Origin: Emcibacter sp.
GTDB lineage: Bacteria; Pseudomonadota; Alphaproteobacteria; Sphingomonadales; Emcibacteraceae
Length of the DNA stretch: 7,360 nucleotides
Direction: 5' to 3'
Assembly (NCBI GenBank): GCA_023142175.1
Contig: JAGLJX010000111.1
Span: 1 to 7,360, forward strand
In this document: positions 1 to 7,360 of the stretch, in pieces
Layout: each line of letters starts with the position of its first letter
How positions within the stretch are numbered: the first letter of the stretch is position 1
Made by a program: the position numbers and the translations under genes
Notes under the pieces: generated by a model
What the model was told of the DNA's origin: nothing
Database searches by the model: none
Seen by the model: the letters and a program-made list of their open reading frames with translations, nothing else

Positions 1-251
1 AAGACCGCAGGAGCGCTCTTTTTAACCAAAGACTCTGCACTCTCGCTGAGAACAGCCCCTTGGTCGAGCCAATGAGCCACTCTATCAGCTTTCACAAGCA
101 CATTCTTTTCAGCCTCTTCTTCAAAGGGATTGTACCAACCTAGATTTTCTAGGTATTTGCCATCCCTTGGCGAACGTGATTCAATCAAAACAATACGGTA
201 GAAAGGACGATTCTTTCTCCCTTGTTGACGTAGTCGTATTTTTAATGCCAT
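1..251 (-). CDS. rpsP: 30S ribosomal protein S16 (3' part cut off by window edge)
   Basis: S16 is a small-subunit ribosomal protein that binds 16S rRNA during 30S assembly. About 83 codons are visible. The start MALKIRLRQQGRKN, the SPRDGKY motif and the LGWYNPF stretch identify the family; the C-terminus lies beyond base 1. The ATG at 249-251 is 3 nt after the ffh stop, and the ribosome-binding site AGAGG lies inside the last ffh codons, so translation is probably coupled to ffh. The gene order ffh-rpsP is common in both Alphaproteobacteria and Chlamydiota. The protein itself fits the chlamydial type: RLRQQGRKN rather than the alphaproteobacterial RLARGGAKK, and a HWLDQGA...LVKKSAPAV region like chlamydial S16. 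That lineage assignment is from memory and was not searched. Base composition here is about 42% GC, lower than the neighbouring part of ffh. Confidence 0.93.
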   Translation of the reverse strand, partial: MALKIRLRQQGRKNRPFYRIVLIESRSPRDGKYLENLGWYNPFEEEAEKNVLVKADRVAHWLDQGAVLSESAESLVKKSAPAV

Positions 252-254
252 TTG

Positions 255-1571
255 CTAACCTCTCATCATTTTTTCCAACATTTTCTTGTTGGGAGCTTTT
301 TTAAATAACTGTTTGGACCGTTTGAAGCTTTTCTTCAACTTATTCACATCACCAACGGTTCTTCCGCTGCCACGAGCTATCCGTTTGGTCCGACTAATCG
401 ATAGCTCATCCTTCTCCTGCCGCTCTCTTGTGGTCATCGACAAGATAATAGACTCAATCTTGGAAAACTCCCCCTCAGATTGGTCGAGGTTGGGCATCTT
501 GGACGCCCCCGGGAGCATCTTCAGAAGCCCCTTGATCGACCCCATCTTCCGTACCGCTTGCATCTGCTTGAGATAGTCCTCGTACGTAAACGATGCCTTA
601 TGAACCTTCTCCTCGAGCTCTTTTGCCTCTTCGTCGCTGATATACTCCTGGGCCTTCTTCACCAAGTTGATCGCATCGCCCATTCCCAAGATCCGATCCG
701 CCATCGACCGCGCATCAAAGAGCTGCAAATCATCCAGCCTCTCGCCAATCCCCTCGAACTTGAGCGGCTTCCCAGTCACCTCTCGGATCGAAATCGCCGC
801 GCCCGCACGCGTATTGCTGTCGAGCATCGTCAAAATCGACCCTGTCATCGTCAGCCGACGATCAAACTCCGCAGCGGCTTTCACCGCATCCTGGCCCGTC
901 GCCGCATTGGCCACAAAGAGGATCTCCGTCGGAGAGAGCTTCTCCTTGATCTTCTCCAGCTGGACCATCATCTCTTCATCGACATGAAGACGACCCGCCG
1001 TATCAAGCATCACCACATCAAAGCCCTGCAATTTCGCCGCCGTAATGGCGCGCTTGGCAATATCAACCGGAGTTTGACCGGGGATAATGGGCAAGGTCGG
1101 CACATCAATTTGTTTTCCGAGAATTTCAAGCTGTTCCATCGCCGCCGGACGCTGCACGTCAAGTGAAGCCATCAGAACTTTTTTACGTTCTTTGTTTTTT
1201 AAACGCTTGGCAATTTTCGCAGTTGATGTTGTTTTACCGGAACCCTGCAAGCCAACCATCAGCATCGGCACCGGCGACGGCGCATTCAGATCAATGGTCT
1301 TGGCATCGCCGCCAAGCATTTCAACCATCTGGTCATTAACTATTTTAACAACCATCTGGCCCGGCGTTACCGATTTGACAACTTCCTGGCCAATGGCTTT
1401 TTCTTTTACCTTGGCAATAAAGTTTTTAACGACCGGCAGGGCAACGTCCGCTTCGAGCAGCGCAAGACGCACTTCGCGCATAGCTTCGTCGACGTGGGCC
1501 TCGGATAGCGCACCACGTCTTTTAAGCTTATCAAATATACCGCCAAGTTTATCACTTAAACTGTCGAACAT
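255..1571 (-). CDS. ffh: Signal recognition particle protein Ffh (SRP54 GTPase), mosaic
   Basis: Ffh is the cytosolic GTPase that, with 4.5S RNA, captures signal sequences of nascent proteins and delivers them to FtsY and SecYEG. The 438-residue product has the N domain (about 1-90), the G domain with P-loop GLQGSGKTT (107-115), DVQRPAA (138-144), DTAGR (190-194) and GKPLKFEGIGE (267-277), and the M domain (about 295-438) with the RIARGSG RNA-binding motif (397-403). The usual TKLD is TMLD (248-251), and the usual DGDARGG is DSNTRAG. Residues 1 to about 190 resemble alphaproteobacterial Ffh. From about 200 on, including FTYEDYLKQM (328-337), it resembles chlamydial Ffh, and synonymous codon use changes at the same place (Glu 9 GAA:1 GAG before, 2 GAA:19 GAG after). 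Start: ATG with AAGAGAG upstream. The frame is intact, so the join could be an assembly chimera or a true recombinant. Confidence 0.95.
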   Translation of the reverse strand: MFDSLSDKLGGIFDKLKRRGALSEAHVDEAMREVRLALLEADVALPVVKNFIAKVKEKAIGQEVVKSVTPGQMVVKIVNDQMVEMLGGDAKTIDLNAPSPVPMLMVGLQGSGKTTSTAKIAKRLKNKERKKVLMASLDVQRPAAMEQLEILGKQIDVPTLPIIPGQTPVDIAKRAITAAKLQGFDVVMLDTAGRLHVDEEMMVQLEKIKEKLSPTEILFVANAATGQDAVKAAAEFDRRLTMTGSILTMLDSNTRAGAAISIREVTGKPLKFEGIGERLDDLQLFDARSMADRILGMGDAINLVKKAQEYISDEEAKELEEKVHKASFTYEDYLKQMQAVRKMGSIKGLLKMLPGASKMPNLDQSEGEFSKIESIILSMTTRERQEKDELSISRTKRIARGSGRTVGDVNKLKKSFKRSKQLFKKAPNKKMLEKMMRG

Positions 1572-1629
1572 ATCGCTCTCTTTATTAATTGCCTCATTTT
1601 AACCAAATGAATTTTTCATAACAAAAACA

Positions 1630-1659
1630 CACCAGTGGGCGAACCTTCGCTGACTGGTG
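1630..1659 (-). terminator. Hairpin plus T-run in the ffh leader (terminator, attenuator or sRNA end)
   Basis: CACCAGT (1630-1636) pairs with ACTGGTG (1653-1659), and an inner stem GCGA/TCGC (1639-1642 with 1647-1650) closes a 4-base loop. On the minus strand the stem is followed at once by TGTTTTTG (down to 1622), the layout of an intrinsic terminator. It sits between the candidate ffh promoter and the ffh start, 58 bases upstream of the ATG. On the plus strand no T-run follows. It could be an attenuator, the end of a short RNA, or a remnant of a lost upstream gene. Confidence 0.5.
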
Positions 1660-1705
1660 GACATCCTTGGACGCAATTCTTCTGCAAATCCTTGATAACG
1701 AGCGG

Positions 1706-1734
1706 AAAATATGGTGATTTAGCCCCAGAGTCAA
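1706..1734 (-). promoter_or_regulatory. Candidate sigma-70 type promoter for ffh
   Basis: On the minus strand, TTGACT (1729-1734, 5 of 6 to consensus) is followed after 17 bases by TATTTT (1706-1711, 4 of 6). Transcription would start near 1699, giving a leader of about 127 bases before the ffh ATG. That leader contains the hairpin at 1630-1659. Confidence 0.45.
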
Positions 1735-1770
1735 GTTCTTGTTTCCAGAAGCTCAAAAAAATGTAATAAG

Positions 1771-1799
1771 TTCACCAAAATTGGCTGCCAAATTATAAC
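1771..1799 (+). promoter_or_regulatory. Candidate promoter for the outer-membrane protein gene
   Basis: TTCACC (1771-1776, 4 of 6 to consensus), 17 bases, then TATAAC (1794-1799, 5 of 6). The start point would be near 1806, leaving a leader of about 30 bases. The spacer contains the 11-base palindrome TTGGC-T-GCCAA (1781-1791). Confidence 0.5.
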
Positions 1800-1836
1800 A
1801 ACTAAAGTGAAATATCCAAAAAGGGACCCTATAATA

Positions 1837-2505
1837 ATGTTTAACAAATCTAAAATCGCCCTGCTCGGTGCATCCGCGCTTGCAATGACCAACTTCCTGA
1901 CAATACAGGCACAGGCAGGTGTTGACGGTAATCCGTTTGAAGGACTTTATCTTGGCTTTAATGCAAATTATTCAAAAGTTACTGCCGACACCACTTATGA
2001 ATTACTAGATGCGGATACAAGTACATTTGGCGGCATCACATCCACTGACGATAGTGCCGGATATGGCGGCGTTTTATATGGCGGCATTGGTACCAACCTT
2101 TGGGGTCCTATGTATGTGGGTATCGAAGGTGGCCTTGGCATCAACGGTGGCACTTCAACGGTTTCTGATGGCGTGGCTTCCCTTGGGTTAAAGGCCGGTT
2201 TCTCATTTGACATTACCGGCCGCGTCGGCATGACCATTTCTGACAGCGTTCTTGTTTATGGACTTGGCGGCTATACTTCCATGAAATTCAGCGGCCGTGG
2301 CTTTGACGTTGAACAGTCAACAAGTCTGGGCGGATACCGTTATGGTGCGGGTTTTGAATTTGGCATTATGGAAGACATCGCCATTCGCGTAGAATATGTA
2401 AGAACCGAACATTCCGCCGTAACATGGTTTAATGGCGGTGACAGTTTCCGTTTCGACCCCAGCACACAAGTGATCAAAATCGGCGTGATCCTGCATATGG
2501 ACTGA
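1837..2505 (+). CDS. Small outer-membrane beta-barrel protein (Omp25/opacity-porin-like), exported
   Basis: Predicted 222-residue outer-membrane protein; its ligand or role cannot be told from sequence. Residues 1-27 are a Sec signal peptide: MFNKSKI basic start, a hydrophobic core, then AQA before GVDG as the likely cleavage site. The mature protein is rich in Gly, Tyr and alternating hydrophobic residues, with strand-like segments such as GLYLGFNANYS (37-47), ITGRVGMTISDSVLVYGLGGY (about 126-146) and IAIRVEYVRTEH (181-192), which is typical of 8-stranded Omp25/OmpA-like barrels in Alphaproteobacteria. The ATG at 1837 is preferred over an in-frame GTG at 1807: AAGGGA (1821-1826) is placed 10 bases before it, and the signal peptide begins there. 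Oddly, the protein ends ...IGVILHMD rather than with a terminal Phe or Trp, the usual BAM recognition residue. It stands alone, divergent from ffh and convergent with plsC. Confidence 0.8.
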   Translation: MFNKSKIALLGASALAMTNFLTIQAQAGVDGNPFEGLYLGFNANYSKVTADTTYELLDADTSTFGGITSTDDSAGYGGVLYGGIGTNLWGPMYVGIEGGLGINGGTSTVSDGVASLGLKAGFSFDITGRVGMTISDSVLVYGLGGYTSMKFSGRGFDVEQSTSLGGYRYGAGFEFGIMEDIAIRVEYVRTEHSAVTWFNGGDSFRFDPSTQVIKIGVILHMD

Positions 2506-2512
2506 GTATAAT

Positions 2513-2554
2513 TTGAAGGTCAGCGACTTACTTCTTATATGTCCTGACCTTCAA
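2513..2554. terminator. Inverted repeat between convergent genes, possible bidirectional terminator
   Basis: TTGAAGGTCAG (2513-2523) and CTGACCTTCAA (2544-2554) form a perfect 11-bp inverted repeat around a 20-base loop. It lies just after the barrel-gene stop and overlaps the stop and last codons of the acyltransferase gene. The loop is long and no strong T-run follows on either strand, so it is a weak intrinsic terminator at best. Confidence 0.4.
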
Positions 2555-3263
2555 CGCCCATCAGTTTTTCGCTGTGTATGACGACGTCCTGCCGAATCCG
2601 TTCCATGAATTCCTGCTTATCCAGACCCCGTTCAATAGCAGGGTGATATTCCAATACGACAGTACCTGGTTTGTTAAAAGGGCTTCCCTTCAGCCAATGA
2701 ACGCCCGTATTGGTCGAAGCGCAAATCACCGGAATATCCACTTCATTCTGCATATAATATACCCCGGACTTTAGTTTCTTACGTTTGCCAACGGGAATAC
2801 GGGTGCCTTCGACAAATAATAACAACGGAATTTTCTGCTTCACCAATATGCGGGCAATTTCGCCCGTTTTATCCTTAGCTTCGCCCTTGCCTCGATTAAT
2901 GGAAATAACCTCCATCTTTTCCAGAACCTGTTTGAAACCAAAAACCTTGAACAGCTCTGCCTTGGCAAGTGCCGTAAGATTCGGCATGCGACGATAAGTG
3001 ATTAAGGCCTCCAGATTGCTCATATGCTTACAACATAGAATAAAGCCCTTGTCTGTGGGGATATTTTCAAGACCGCGTTCTTCCACTTTAATTCCGCTGA
3101 TCTTGTCCAGCAGAAAAAATACCGCATCAAACCAAGCTGACAAACAACGCCGCATGGGTTTGGGTGATTTGAGAAAAGACGCCGGCACCAGAATCAGCAC
3201 AACATACAACGGTGCAGTTATCCAGAATAGAAAATTGAAAATCAGGGAACGTAGGTGACTCAT
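2535..3263 (-). CDS. plsC: 1-acyl-sn-glycerol-3-phosphate acyltransferase (PlsC/LPLAT family)
   Basis: This family acylates lysophosphatidic acid at the sn-2 position to give phosphatidic acid, at the cytoplasmic face of the inner membrane. The 242-residue product is a normal family length. An N-terminal membrane segment spans about residues 8-30. Block I is KHMSNLE with catalytic His80; the acidic partner five residues on is Glu85, so HX4E rather than the classical HX4D, a variant I associate with alphaproteobacterial members. Block II is SINRGKG (121-127), block III is FVEGTR (150-155), and block IV is around IPVI (177-180). The ATG is followed directly by the membrane segment, and a weak purine-rich AGATGAG lies about 9 bases upstream. 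The gene is monocistronic here, divergent from the efflux operon with its own promoter candidate. The acyl acceptor could be another lysolipid, so the symbol is by family. Confidence 0.87.
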   Translation of the reverse strand: MSHLRSLIFNFLFWITAPLYVVLILVPASFLKSPKPMRRCLSAWFDAVFFLLDKISGIKVEERGLENIPTDKGFILCCKHMSNLEALITYRRMPNLTALAKAELFKVFGFKQVLEKMEVISINRGKGEAKDKTGEIARILVKQKIPLLLFVEGTRIPVGKRKKLKSGVYYMQNEVDIPVICASTNTGVHWLKGSPFNKPGTVVLEYHPAIERGLDKQEFMERIRQDVVIHSEKLMGVEGQDI

Positions 3264-3298
3264 AAATAAATACTCATCTTTTTCAGGGGTTCGGGGCC

Positions 3299-3327
3299 AT
3301 GTTATTTATTTCAATGGGCTTTGTCAA
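3299..3327 (-). promoter_or_regulatory. Candidate sigma-70 type promoter for plsC
   Basis: On the minus strand, a perfect TTGACA (3322-3327), 17 bases, then TAACAT (3299-3304, 4 of 6). The start would be near 3292, about 28 bases before the plsC ATG. It does not overlap the efflux promoter. Confidence 0.5.
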
Positions 3328-3350
3328 AACAGCTTTTATCACGATTAATG

Positions 3351-3378
3351 TTGACAGTGCATATATCCCTGATATGTT
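3351..3378 (+). promoter_or_regulatory. Promoter of the RND efflux operon, extended -10 type
   Basis: A perfect TTGACA (3351-3356), 16 bases, then TATGTT (3373-3378, 4 of 6), preceded by TGA (3370-3372), which supplies the TGn of an extended -10. The start would be near 3385, about 45 bases before the adaptor ATG. Confidence 0.6.
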
Positions 3379-3386
3379 ATCACTGT
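3354..3386. promoter_or_regulatory. Nested dyad operator overlapping the efflux promoter
   Basis: ACAGTG (3354-3359) and CACTGT (3381-3386) are perfect inverted repeats. Inside them CATAT (3360-3364) and ATATG (3372-3376) form a second inverted pair around a 7-base centre. The two pairs are nearly concentric, offset by a 4-base bulge on the right. The dyad covers the -35, spacer and -10, the place where a TetR-type repressor would block RNA polymerase. Repressors of that family commonly control RND pumps, but no regulator gene is in the window, so the family is an inference. Confidence 0.5.
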
Positions 3387-3430
3387 AAACATAGAAATGA
3401 TTCTGTGTGTATTTTTTGCGCGAGAATTTA

Positions 3431-4654
3431 ATGACTGAGAATAGTGACAATATGGTTGAGAGTAATTCTGGAGTATCCTCCTTTTATGCCCGCAACAGGT
3501 TGCACATTGCCTTGGGAGGTTTTCTCATCATTGCCATAACTGGCGCAATTTTTTTAACCAGAGTTTCTGCATTGGCCGACCTGAATGATGATCAGGCGGC
3601 ACTGGCGCAGGCCCTCACTGTTAATGTCACAACCATTCAGGCAGTAGGTCACTATCAGGTAAAACAGAAATATTCCGGCAGCATCGTCGCAGGCCGGGAA
3701 AGCGATCACGGTTTTGACAAGGCCGGGATTCTGGCAGAAGTATTGGTTGATGAAGGCGATCAGGTTAAAAAGGGCGACATATTGGCTCGTCTGGATATGC
3801 GCCGTTTTGATGCGCGTGAAAGTGAACTTGCCGCCGGTCTGGCACAGGCAAGGGCGCTGAATGTGGAAACACAGGCCCTGCTTGATCGGGCCGAAACCAC
3901 CTTTACACGTTACAGCGTGCTTGTGGACAAAAAACATATATCCGAGCAGAAATTTGATCAGGTGAAATTTGATCTTCTCGCCCTGAAAGCCCGAAAGGTT
4001 GCCACCGCCGCCGCAGTGACAAGATCACAGGCGGCTTTAAAGAGTCTGGAGATTGACCGGGATCTGGCGAGCTTAACAGCCCGATTTGATGGCAGCGTGG
4101 TTCTGCGCTACCTTGATGAGGGAACAGCGCTTGGTGCTGGCACGTCCGTTTTGCGCCTGATAGAAGACCGCAAACTTGAAATTCATGTGGGTCTATCGCC
4201 TTCCGCAGTGCTTTCACTGGTGCTGGGGGATGTTTATATCTTTGACCATAAGGGCGGTAAAATCACAACCCGCTTGCGCTCCATCCTCAAAAGAGTGGAT
4301 CAATCCACCCGCACAGTTACCGCCATTTTTGATGTGACCGATGACAATATCAATATTCGCGCGGGCGGCCTCGCCCAACTGACCGTGAACAGAGATATTC
4401 AGCAGGACGGTTTCTGGCTGCCCAGCGTTGCACTAGCCGAAAGTCGGCGGGGGTTATGGAGCGTCTATAGCCTGAAACCCTATAAAGGCTCCGGTGTATA
4501 TGGCACCCTGTCCCGGCAGGAATTACAGGTGCTTTATACGGATTCCGATCATGTTTTTGTGCGCGGGACGCTACAGGACGGCGAACGGGTTATATCCGGT
4601 GGCACCCACCGTCTGGTTCCCGGCCAGCTGGTTCGAATAGCCGGGGATAACTAG
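3431..4654 (+). CDS. RND efflux periplasmic adaptor (membrane fusion protein, HlyD/AcrA family)
   Basis: The adaptor links an inner-membrane RND pump to an outer-membrane channel across the periplasm. From the ATG at 3431 the product is 407 residues, the usual size. One membrane segment (about 25-44) anchors it; there is no lipobox cysteine, so it is not a lipoprotein. A biotinyl-lipoyl-like half motif with EVLVDEGDQVKKGDILARLD lies at about 103-122, an Ala/Gln-rich coiled-coil hairpin at about 123-207, and the second lipoyl half with ARFDGSVVLRYLDEGTAL at 217-234. Beta-barrel and membrane-proximal domains follow, ending VPGQLVRIAGDN. An in-frame GTG at 3407 would add 8 residues; the ATG is preferred because the promoter allows a normal leader, although its ribosome-binding site (GCGAGAA) is weak. 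The pump gene starts 2 bases after the stop, so the two are one operon. The exported substrate cannot be inferred. Confidence 0.9.
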   Translation: MTENSDNMVESNSGVSSFYARNRLHIALGGFLIIAITGAIFLTRVSALADLNDDQAALAQALTVNVTTIQAVGHYQVKQKYSGSIVAGRESDHGFDKAGILAEVLVDEGDQVKKGDILARLDMRRFDARESELAAGLAQARALNVETQALLDRAETTFTRYSVLVDKKHISEQKFDQVKFDLLALKARKVATAAAVTRSQAALKSLEIDRDLASLTARFDGSVVLRYLDEGTALGAGTSVLRLIEDRKLEIHVGLSPSAVLSLVLGDVYIFDHKGGKITTRLRSILKRVDQSTRTVTAIFDVTDDNINIRAGGLAQLTVNRDIQQDGFWLPSVALAESRRGLWSVYSLKPYKGSGVYGTLSRQELQVLYTDSDHVFVRGTLQDGERVISGGTHRLVPGQLVRIAGDN

Positions 4655-4656
4655 CC

Positions 4657-5229
4657 ATGTGGAGCAATCTTTTCTTCCGCAACCGCCGTCTGACGACCCT
4701 TGCCATTGGACTGATTCTTGTGGCAGGGTTTTCCGCCATATCCTCCCTGCCACGACAGGAAGATCCAAGCCTTACCCATCGTTTTGATGCGGCCAACACC
4801 CCTTTTCCCGGTGCCAGCGCCGAACGGGTTGAAGCTCTGGTCACCGAACGGATTGAAGCCGCCCTAAGTGAGATTGATGAAATCAAACGCCTGAGAAGCA
4901 CATCACGCACTGGAATGTCAACGGTCAGCATCGAGTTTGAGGATTCGGTTCCAAAAGAAGATATTGAAAACCTGTGGTCACAGATTCGCGACAAGCTGAA
5001 GGATGCGGAGCGGGATATGCCCGAGGGTGCGGGAACACCCTATTTGCTGGACCGGGAATCTGCGGTTTTTACCTTTATGGTCGGCCTGACGTGGGATATA
5101 CCCACAGAGCCGCAGATTGATATATTAGGCCGTTTCGCCAAGGAATTTGAACGCATCATCTCGCCCATATCCGGCACGGAAGAAACCGAGTTTTTGGCGA
5201 GCTGGATGAAGAATATATTGTCACCATAG
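4657..5229 (+). CDS. RND efflux pump, inner-membrane permease: N-terminal piece before a frameshift
   Basis: This is the first part of an AcrB/HAE-1-like RND proton-driven pump, which exports compounds through the adaptor encoded just upstream. As read, it gives 190 residues ending in a premature TAG. It shows the first membrane helix (about 11-31: LTTLAIGLILVAGFSAIS), then the porter domain with LPRQEDPSL (31-39), FPGASAERVE (49-58), the SIEFEDSV stretch and LWSQIRDKLKDAERDMP. Homology holds up to ISGTEETEF (about residue 179); after that the residues LASWMKNILSP are out-of-frame translation. The true continuation is in the next frame from 5196. A single extra T in the T5 run at 5191-5195 would restore ETEFFGELDEEY, a normal RND sequence. 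The start ATG is 2 bases after the adaptor stop. If the frameshift is real, this truncated product cannot pump. Confidence 0.85.
   Translation: MWSNLFFRNRRLTTLAIGLILVAGFSAISSLPRQEDPSLTHRFDAANTPFPGASAERVEALVTERIEAALSEIDEIKRLRSTSRTGMSTVSIEFEDSVPKEDIENLWSQIRDKLKDAERDMPEGAGTPYLLDRESAVFTFMVGLTWDIPTEPQIDILGRFAKEFERIISPISGTEETEFLASWMKNILSP
5191..5195 (+). other. Frameshift site in the RND pump gene (T5 run)
   Basis: The reading frame of the pump changes here. Upstream homology ends ...TETEF and downstream homology resumes as GELDEEYIV in the -1 frame. Six T's would give an uninterrupted gene, so a one-base loss in the homopolymer is the simplest cause. The context G-TTT-TTG is not a canonical -1 slippery heptamer. 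Confidence 0.85.
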
Positions 5230-7360
5230 ACCCTGATGCGCTGGCCTCTGTGGGCCTGACGGCGAAGGATGTTTCAGACGCCATCGCCCGCACGGATTCG
5301 AAAGTTCCCGCCGGGCAGTTGCGCGGTGCAGGCCATGATCTGATTCTGGAAGTAGGCGGCGAGCTTAAATCCGAAGACCGCATCCGCAATATCCCCTTAA
5401 AACAGACCGCGACCGGACAGTTTCTGCGCGTGGGCGATGTGGCAGAAGTTAAAAAAGGCTACCAAATGCCCGTCTACAGCATGGCGCTTCTGAATGGCGA
5501 GCGCGGCGTCATCGTCGGGGCCAAAGTGAATGACAGTATCCGCGTTGACCAATGGGCAGCTAGGCTACAGGGCGAGCTTGACCAGTTCCGAAAAACCCTG
5601 CCCGAAGGGATTAAGGCCGAGGTCATCTTTAATCAGGATGTTTATTCCACCAAACGCCTGTCGACCCTACTGGGCAATGTTTTTCTGGGTGCGGGTATCA
5701 TCGTCCTTATTATGATTTTTATGATGGGCTGGCGCTCAGCCATTCTGGTGGCGACCGCATTGCCACTCACCGTATTGATGGTAATGGCGACCTTCAATTT
5801 TATGGATATACCCCTGCATCAGATGTCTATTACCGGACTGATCATTGCCCTTGGGCTGCTGATCGATAATGCCATTGTCGCCGTGGATGAATATCGCAAG
5901 GCCAGAAGGCTTAGGTATGACGTGGCATCGTCAATCTCAAAGATGGTCAAACATCTGACCATTCCCTTGCTGGCCTCTACCCTAACCACTTCGCTGACCT
6001 TCATGCCCATTGTTTTATCCCCCGGTGCCACTGGTGAATTTATCGGAACTATTGGCTTGGCGGTGATTATTTCGCTTTTCTCCTCGCTGTTTCTGGCTTT
6101 AACCATCATTCCGGCGTTGGCGGGATATTTTGACCGTGGCGAATTGCTCAAGGACAAATGCGGCATTTTGCAAAGTGGCTATAGCAATTTGGGCATGAAA
6201 GAAAAATATCGCACCGCCCTGCGCTGGTGTATGGATCACCCCAGAAAGGCACTGTTGCTGTCCATCGCCCTGCCGGTGCTTGGTTTTATCCTGAGCACCA
6301 CATTGGTTCAGCAGTTCTTTCCGCCCGTGGACAGGGATCAGTTCCAGATTCAAATGACCCTGCCCGGGCAGACCAGTCTGAGCGAAACCACCCGGCAGGT
6401 GGGTATTGCACGGAAAATAATGGCAAAATATCCGGAGATAACCAGCGATTACTGGGTGGTTGCCGAAACACCACCAGCGGTATTTTACAATACCTTTCTT
6501 AATCAGGCCGGATTGAACAGCTTTGCCGGCGCCTTCGTCAATACCATCTCGGACGAAGCCACTCTGGAAATTCTTCCCCAGCTTCAGCGCGACCTGATGG
6601 CAGGTCTGCCCGATGCCATAATCCTCGCCATTCCATTTGAGCAGGGGCCGCCCTTTGAAGCCCCCATCGAAGTCTTCCTCTATGGTCAGGACTTGAAAAT
6701 CCTGTCTGAAAAGGGTGAAGAAATCCGCAACATTATGGCGCGGACCAAAAATGTCACCTATACCAGTGCAAAAACCTCCCTTAGCCAGCCCAAGCTTAAT
6801 TTTGTCCCCAATGAGGATGCCGCCGAGGCCGCGGGTCTGAAATTAAACCAGATTGCCGAGCAGCTTAATAATACCCTTGAGGGCCATATTGGTGGCAGCG
6901 TGCTGGAAGGCAGTGAGAATTTACCGGTTCGGGTTCAGGTGGGCGGTTCTGATCGCTCTGACCTGAGTTTTCTGTTTAACAATTCCCTAGTCGCGGCAAA
7001 TGGCAGCCTGACCACTGGCGGGCAGCATCTTTCCGGTGTGCCGCTCAGCAGTCTGGGTACACTGGAATTAATTCCGGCCTATAACAGCGTCAATAGACGT
7101 GATATGCAGCGGCTGAATATTCTTCAGGGTTTCATCACCCCGTTTAGTTTGCCCAGTCTGGCACTGGCGGATTTTCAGCAGCGCCTGAAGGATGCCAATT
7201 TTGAACTGCCCGCGGGCTACCGAATTGAGTTTGGCGGCGAGACGGAAAAACGCTCTGAATCACAGGGAGAATTATTTTCAACTGTCCTGCCTCTTCTGGT
7301 GATCATGATGGGAATATTGGTGTTGGCCTTTAACAGCTTTACGTCAGCATTGATCATCGG
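5196..7360 (+). CDS. RND efflux pump: main part after the frameshift, 3' end beyond window
   Basis: This is the remainder of the same pump. The frame is open from 5196 to the window end, about 721 codons, with no stop; it is not expected to have its own start (a GTG at 5250 is the first in-frame option). It begins GELDEEYIVTIDPDALASVGL, the porter domain continuing. Helices 2-6 follow: IIVLIMIFMMGW, then LPLTVLMVMATF, and helix 4 with IALGLLIDNAIVAVDE. In helix 4 the proton-relay pair is Asp-Asn (codons 5865-5870) where AcrB has Asp-Asp. Next come LTTSLTFMPIVLSPGATGEF and the second large periplasmic loop from about 6300. The helix-8 region LPLLVIMMGILVLAFNSF ends at the window edge. About 130-200 residues are missing at the C-terminus by comparison with a usual RND length near 1020-1040. 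The substrate is unknown. Confidence 0.87.

What the first reader, a model, noticed from the sequence alone, without database searches (positions are those of the whole stretch)
959..1019. ffh is a mosaic: alphaproteobacterial N-terminal half joined in frame to a chlamydial-like C-terminal half
Seen: within one intact reading frame, Glu codons go from 9 GAA:1 GAG (residues 1-198) to 2 GAA:19 GAG (residues 203-438), and GC by hand count goes from about 50% (961-1560) to about 56% (361-960). The change falls at the conserved block GFDVVMLDTAGR..DEEMM. From memory of the families, the N part matches Alphaproteobacteria like the rest of the window, and the C part (FTYEDYLKQM, TRAGAAIS) matches Chlamydiota. 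Either an assembler joined two organisms at a conserved stretch, or an essential GTPase gene was recombined between phyla.
Basis: partly seen in the sequence, partly recalled or inferred. Interest (0 to 1): 0.75.

Follow-up and report, generated by a model that had tools for sequence, protein, structure and literature searches.

The report
Ffh gene stitched by assembly error
This stretch is most likely an assembly mistake that glued pieces of three different bacteria together at short shared sequences, so the apparent hybrid protein-targeting gene is probably not a real gene.

Summary
The 438-aa ffh ORF is a mosaic. Residues 1-198 match an uncultured alphaproteobacterial clade ("A"; L002, titled Kordiimonadaceae, 96%). 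Residues 203-438 match a Chlamydiae MAG protein at 94%. Trees of the two halves disagree. The switch lies in 978-1007, at most 30 bases of possible identity, at the codons for LDTAGRLHVD. The downstream rpsP is chlamydial too.

From there to 7360 the window follows a different clade of the same family ("B"; 80% DNA over 5.7 kb, PlsC 93%). So the 7360-base contig is chlamydial / alpha A / alpha B, and each join lies in a short stretch that the neighbouring sources share or can share. None of 253 other proteins retrieved has both halves, and none of 32 family genomes combines A-type ffh with B-type upstream genes.

The best explanation is an assembly (or library) chimera, not recombination between phyla. 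The RND permease frame is also broken in this contig, which fits low consensus quality but does not prove it. Reads were not available, so the artefact is inferred, not shown.

The parts
3..251 (-). rpsP (bS16), cut by the contig end; chlamydial source
   Evidence: S16 family; best matches chlamydial loci (76% L042), alphaproteobacterial loci at most about 52%
255..977 (-). ffh codons 199-438 (rest of the GTPase domain and the M domain); chlamydial source
   Evidence: residues 203-438 94% to P0121 (Chlamydiae MAG); C-half tree, query+P0121 support 100
978..1007 (-). Join 1: at most 30 bases in which clade A and the chlamydial source can be identical (codons 189-198, LDTAGRLHVD)
   Evidence: residues 188 (Met/Ile) and 199 (Gln/Glu) bound it; conservation rank 41 of 683 30-base windows
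1008..1571 (-). ffh codons 1-188 (N domain and first part of the G domain); alphaproteobacterial clade A
   Evidence: N half 90-96% aa to clade-A loci, 77-82% to clade-B loci; 36 A-type and 4 B-type diagnostic sites in 975-1571; tree, tests
1572..1624 (-). ffh leader with clade-A diagnostic sites
   Evidence: sites 1580-1613 are all A-type (10 of 10)
1625..1661 (-). Join 2: stretch identical or nearly so between clades A and B (conserved core of the ffh sRNA)
   Evidence: shared exact runs through 1640 up to 37 bases (median 28 over 84 A x B pairs); window 1630-1660 ranks 1 of 768
1622..1674 (-). ffh sRNA (RF01793); join 2 lies inside it
   Evidence: 50.1 bits, gathering 35; also found in L002, L005, L008
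1662..7360 (.). Clade-B chromosome segment: OMP beta-barrel (1807-2505 +), PlsC-like acyltransferase (2535-3263 -), RND periplasmic adaptor (3407-4654 +), RND permease in two frames (4657-5229 +, 5250-7358 +)
   Evidence: 1617-7360 aligns to L071 (G296) at 80% DNA in one piece; aa identities; PlsC tree

Best explanation
The 7360-base contig is a three-source chimera made during assembly (or, less likely, in library amplification). Shown: 1-~990 is from a Chlamydiota chromosome (rpsP and the 3' part of ffh), ~990-~1640 is from one Emcibacteraceae/Kordiimonadaceae-type alphaproteobacterium, and ~1640-7360 is from a second alphaproteobacterium of the same family. Each join falls in a short stretch (up to 30 and about 30-37 bases) where the neighbouring sources are, or can be, identical. 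Inferred: an assembler with a short word length passed from one genome to another at these shared words. The reading frame survives because both parents encode the same residues in the same frame at the join.
For: Each half has a different nearest relative, and none of 253 other proteins retrieved has both halves (at least 85%: N 23, C 1, both 0; best min(N,C) 53%). With the window's full ffh as query, 396 genomes of the alphaproteobacterial order give at best 67% (60 of 396 pass E 1e-140), and the scan of genome contigs gave 38 loci, at best 67%. Trees conflict: C half with P0121 at support 100; in the C tree query with clade A is rejected (p-AU 0.00017); in the N tree query with chlamydiae (0.013) and query with B (0.013) are rejected, while query with A fits (0.73). 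A second join sits about 630 bases away, with diagnostic sites switching from A (10 of 10 at 1580-1613) to B (11 of 11 at 1662-1691). Join 2 is at the most conserved A-B stretch, rank 1 of 768. None of 32 family genomes combines A-type ffh (12 genomes, 77-83% DNA) with B-type PlsC near ffh (13 genomes, 69-93% aa). The mosaic protein is 1 sequence on 1 contig, of 7360 bases. The RND permease is one 1046-aa ORF in L071 but split over two frames here.
Against: No reads, depth or assembly method could be seen, and the source of the contig is unknown. The join keeps the frame and the ORF is intact; this is expected at a conserved codon stretch, but also expected of a working gene. The exact parent genomes were not found (nearest: ffh N half 96%, PlsC 93%, ffh C half 94%), and no DNA of the P0121 organism was available, so the 30-base bound at join 1 rests on its protein. 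Join 1 is not the single most conserved stretch (rank 41 of 683). Exact A-chlamydial shared runs of 15 or more bases were seen in only 2 of the 25 pairs tested (28 and 17 bases). In the quick N-half tree the query did not form a starred clade with A, although the constrained tree with A scored higher. Beyond 1691 the diagnostic sites are mixed (A at 1694, 1698, 1771; B at 1745, 1755). Assembly at final word lengths of 55 or more would not join at 30 bases unless a chimeric read carried the join (recalled, not tested).
Confidence: 0.93

Rival explanations
1. A real alphaproteobacterium whose ffh 3' half and downstream rpsP were replaced by chlamydial DNA through recombination at the conserved G-domain stretch, giving a hybrid SRP GTPase with a chlamydial M domain.
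For: Intact frame with full Pfam architecture (N, G, M domains); ffh family score above cutoff; gene order ffh-rpsP is the same on both sides, seen in L005, L008 and L038, so a replacement would keep the gene order.
Against: No second instance among 253 proteins, nor in 396 genomes of the alphaproteobacterial order (best 67%), nor in the genome-contig scan (38 loci, best 67%); needs recombination over at most 30 shared bases between phyla; the same contig holds a second join about 630 bases away.
Confidence: 0.02
2. Only join 1 is an artefact; join 2 is a natural exchange, so that a real clade-B-like alphaproteobacterium carries a clade-A ffh and leader.
For: A and B are in one family and both carry a related outer-membrane protein gene upstream of ffh; the shared ffh sRNA core could serve homologous recombination.
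Against: 0 of 32 family genomes show the combination (4 of the 32 lack a match to ffh or PlsC and say little); a single process explains both joins.
Confidence: 0.06
3. Chimera made by PCR or MDA template switching in library preparation rather than by the assembler.
For: Template switching also favours conserved stretches (recalled, not tested); would explain a join at 30 bases even under large final word lengths.
Against: Two such events would have to end up in one contig within about 650 bases; no read data to test.
Confidence: 0.15

Closest known systems
Inter-species chimeric contigs of de Bruijn-graph metagenome assemblers
   Same: Joins lie in short stretches shared by two genomes, each side continuing in a different species; described as 'chimeric nodes' in PMC8171044 (passages read) and as interspecies chimeras in PMC2829047 (passages read)
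   Different: Here the sources at join 1 are in different phyla rather than close species, and two joins lie within about 650 bases; assembler and word length are unknown
Ffh / SRP54 (TIGR00959) of Emcibacteraceae/Kordiimonadaceae-type alphaproteobacteria
   Same: Residues 1-198, 90-96% identical to clade-A loci; same upstream ffh sRNA family (RF01793)
   Different: The 23 proteins with N half at least 85% have a C half only 24-43% identical to the query (some are fragments)
Ffh of environmental Chlamydiota (P0121)
   Same: Residues 203-438 94% identical; rpsP lies downstream of ffh in related chlamydial loci such as L038
   Different: P0121 has a chlamydial N half; N identity to the query in proteins with C at least 70% and over 400 aa is at most 53%

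Membership tests
Interspecies chimeric contig | Non-overlapping parts of one contig match different species best | tested here: met
   three parts, three sources
Interspecies chimeric contig | Join lies in a stretch shared by both sources | tested here: inconclusive
   Met for join 2: rank 1 of 768, shared runs up to 37 bases. Join 1 is bounded to at most 30 bases, rank 41 of 683; whether the true parents are identical there was not seen
Interspecies chimeric contig | No reads or read pairs support the junction; depth differs between sides | not testable with these tools
   No reads available; no whole genome held for the window
Natural inter-phylum recombinant ffh | Same junction in an independent genome or assembly | tested here: not met
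   0 of 253 other proteins with both halves at least 85%; 396 genomes of the order at best 67%. Not exhaustive: only the best 120 rows of each protein search are shown
ffh equivalog TIGR00959 | Score above curated cutoff with N, G and M domains | tested here: met
   553 bits vs 473 cutoff; PF02881, PF00448, PF02978
Rfam ffh sRNA RF01793 | Score above gathering threshold upstream of ffh | tested here: met
   50.1 vs 35 bits at 1622-1674 (-); but join 2 lies inside it

The most novel reading that the evidence does not exclude
A living alphaproteobacterium carries an essential SRP GTPase recombined in frame, inside its GTPase domain, with a chlamydial gene, plus the chlamydial rpsP downstream.
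Probability: 0.02. Interest if true: 0.8.

Novelty: not a real feature. Interest (0 to 1): 0.12.

Why it matters
If real, it would be an in-frame exchange between phyla inside a core, normally vertically inherited GTPase. As an artefact it shows that an intact ORF with complete domain architecture is no proof of a real gene. Chimeric contigs of this kind put false hybrid proteins into protein databases and can mislead horizontal-transfer scans, marker-gene trees and binning. The two-join pattern, with joins at stretches the neighbouring sources share, is a useful signature for filtering.

Tried and rejected
Codon usage as proof by itself: the Glu-codon contrast is real (p = 2.5e-5). But the ten chlamydial loci examined are not as GAG-rich in residues 203-438 (GAA:GAG from 18:1 to 8:13), so composition only points to the break and does not name the donor.

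Domain-boundary fusion: rejected, because the join is inside the G domain (PF00448, residues 103-296).

Viral or mobile carriage: a scan of viral contigs with the protein found nothing.

A third join inside the chlamydial part: window GC3 falls from 0.77 (residues 203-360) to 0.55 (361-438) and 0.37 in rpsP, and 14 of the 15 differences from P0121 after residue 198 lie at 311 or beyond. In the ten chlamydial loci the same GC3 change is -0.14 to +0.04. Without DNA of the P0121 organism this was left open.

Further joins in 1720-7360: identity to L071 stays 62-89% in 120-base steps, with no switch seen.

A claim dropped on checking: searches used parental queries and strict E-value cuts, so they do not test for mosaics in alphaproteobacterial genomes. 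One search was run for that.

Literature: four searches. 'ffh sRNA' with 'alphaproteobacteria' gave 0 papers. The search for Ffh, mosaic and horizontal transfer gave 7 listings, of which only titles and starts of abstracts were seen; none looked to be about a mosaic ffh. Of two papers (PMC8171044, PMC2829047) passages were read.

Full report
What is there. The window appears to be a whole 7360-base contig: the protein search lists the window's ffh as one sequence on one contig with longest contig 7360. It holds a truncated rpsP (3-251, -), ffh (255-1571, -), an ffh sRNA (1622-1674, -; RF01793), an outer-membrane beta-barrel gene (1807-2505, +), a PlsC-like acyltransferase (2535-3263, -), an RND adaptor (3407-4654, +) and an RND permease in two frames (4657-5229 and 5250-7358, +).

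The stated numbers hold. Glu codons are 9 GAA:1 GAG in residues 1-198 and 2:19 in 203-438 (Fisher p 2.5e-5). GC is 49.5% in 961-1560 and 55.7% in 361-960.

Two halves, two phyla. Residues 1-198 searched alone give, after the window itself, P0002 at 96% (no name given) and rows whose names, where given, are alphaproteobacterial or 'Proteobacteria' (Emcibacteraceae, Kordiimonadaceae, Emcibacter and others). Residues 203-438 give P0121, a Chlamydiae MAG, at 94% and then rows at 79% or less, most unnamed; the named ones are nearly all chlamydial, one is 'Verrucomicrobia bacterium'. A full-length search puts P0121 (74%) next after the window. Of the 253 other proteins retrieved in the three searches, 23 match the N half at 85% or more, 1 matches the C half so, and none does both. 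The best value of min(N,C) is 53%. These are the best 120 rows of each search, not all hits. The window's ffh as query against 396 genomes of the alphaproteobacterial order finds 60 at E 1e-140 or better, the best at 67% identity. The genome-contig scan found 38 loci, the best at 67%.

Trees of 45 rows put the C half with P0121 (support 100) inside the chlamydial group. They put the N half among alphaproteobacteria (support 100), nearest L002 at 96%. Constrained tests: N half with chlamydiae p-AU 0.013; N half with clade B 0.013; N half with clade A 0.73, higher likelihood than the free tree; C half with clade A 0.00017. The query's place next to A in the quick free N tree is not itself well supported.

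Join 1. Codon 188 is Met in the window and in 10 of the 12 distinct clade-A sequences printed (Ile in L001 and L005), and Ile in P0121. Codon 199 is Glu in the window and P0121, and Gln in 12 of 12. The longest stretch that the parents can share is therefore 978-1007, 30 bases, if they conform to these relatives. In the region 860-1571 this window ranks 41 of 683 by conservation between 12 clade-A and 5 chlamydial loci, so it is well conserved but not the most conserved. Only 2 of 25 A-chlamydial pairs of known loci share an exact run of 15 or more bases anywhere in that region (28 and 17 bases). The downstream rpsP follows the chlamydial side: up to 76% to chlamydial loci, and at most about 52% to alphaproteobacterial ones.

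DNA matches of the loci closest to the ffh N half (clade A; L002 and others) end at 1768-1782. Another clade of the same family (clade B) behaves differently: in L071 (G296) one aligned piece runs from 1617 to 7360 at 80%, but the ffh N half has only 74%. Six further clade-B loci show the same pattern in several pieces or over shorter contigs. At protein level: ffh N half, A 90-96%, B 77-82%; beta-barrel protein, A 30-42%, B 53-76%; PlsC, B 76-93% in L071-L077, while the 12 A genomes have it at 46-52% elsewhere. The PlsC tree joins the window to L071 (support 98). Sites that separate A from B are A-type at 1580-1613 (10 of 10), then B-type at 1662-1691 (11 of 11), with 2 A-type (1694, 1698), 2 B-type (1745, 1755) and 1 A-type (1771) beyond. 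Inside 975-1571 they are 36 A and 4 B.

The switch lies in the ffh sRNA core. Exact runs shared by A and B loci through 1640 reach 37 bases (median 28 of 84 pairs), and the 31-base window 1630-1660 is the most conserved A-B window of 768. Of 32 genomes of the family, 12 have A-type ffh DNA (77-83%), 13 have B-type PlsC (69-93%) on the ffh contig about 1-2 kb away, none has both, and 7 have neither; of these 7, four lack a match to ffh or to PlsC and so say little.

What it most likely is. Shown: three sources and two joins, the second in a stretch that the flanking sources share and the first in one they can share. Inferred: an assembler moved between genomes at words of about 30 bases. PMC8171044 (passages read) describes such shared stretches as chimeric nodes and reports that about 60-87% of the 500 longest contigs of several assemblers were chimeric on one benchmark set. 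The two joins within about 650 bases, the lack of any second copy in these searches, and the broken RND permease frame (one 1046-aa ORF in L071) all fit a poorly supported contig. That the frame survives needs no selection, because the joined stretch codes for the same residues in both parents.

Recombination between phyla is therefore not excluded, but it has to explain join 2 separately. I give it 2%.

Verdict. The mosaic in the sequence is real; the mosaic gene very probably is not. Novelty: not a real feature. Interest 0.12, mainly as a warning example.

Noticed in passing
1613-1662: Second join between two alphaproteobacterial clades inside the ffh sRNA core; the finding did not mention it.
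   Followed up: yes
4657-7358: RND permease split over two frames near 5200-5250, while the syntenic relative L071 has one 1046-aa ORF; sequence error or pseudogene. Described only, not mended.
   Followed up: partly
1-500: GC3 falls within the chlamydial part (ffh 3' end and rpsP) and differences from P0121 cluster after residue 310; a further chlamydial-chlamydial join cannot be excluded.
   Followed up: partly
1807-2505: A fast-evolving outer-membrane beta-barrel gene sits upstream of ffh in both alphaproteobacterial clades: matched in 18 clade-A loci, which are 12 distinct genomes, and in 7 of 7 clade-B loci.
   Followed up: partly
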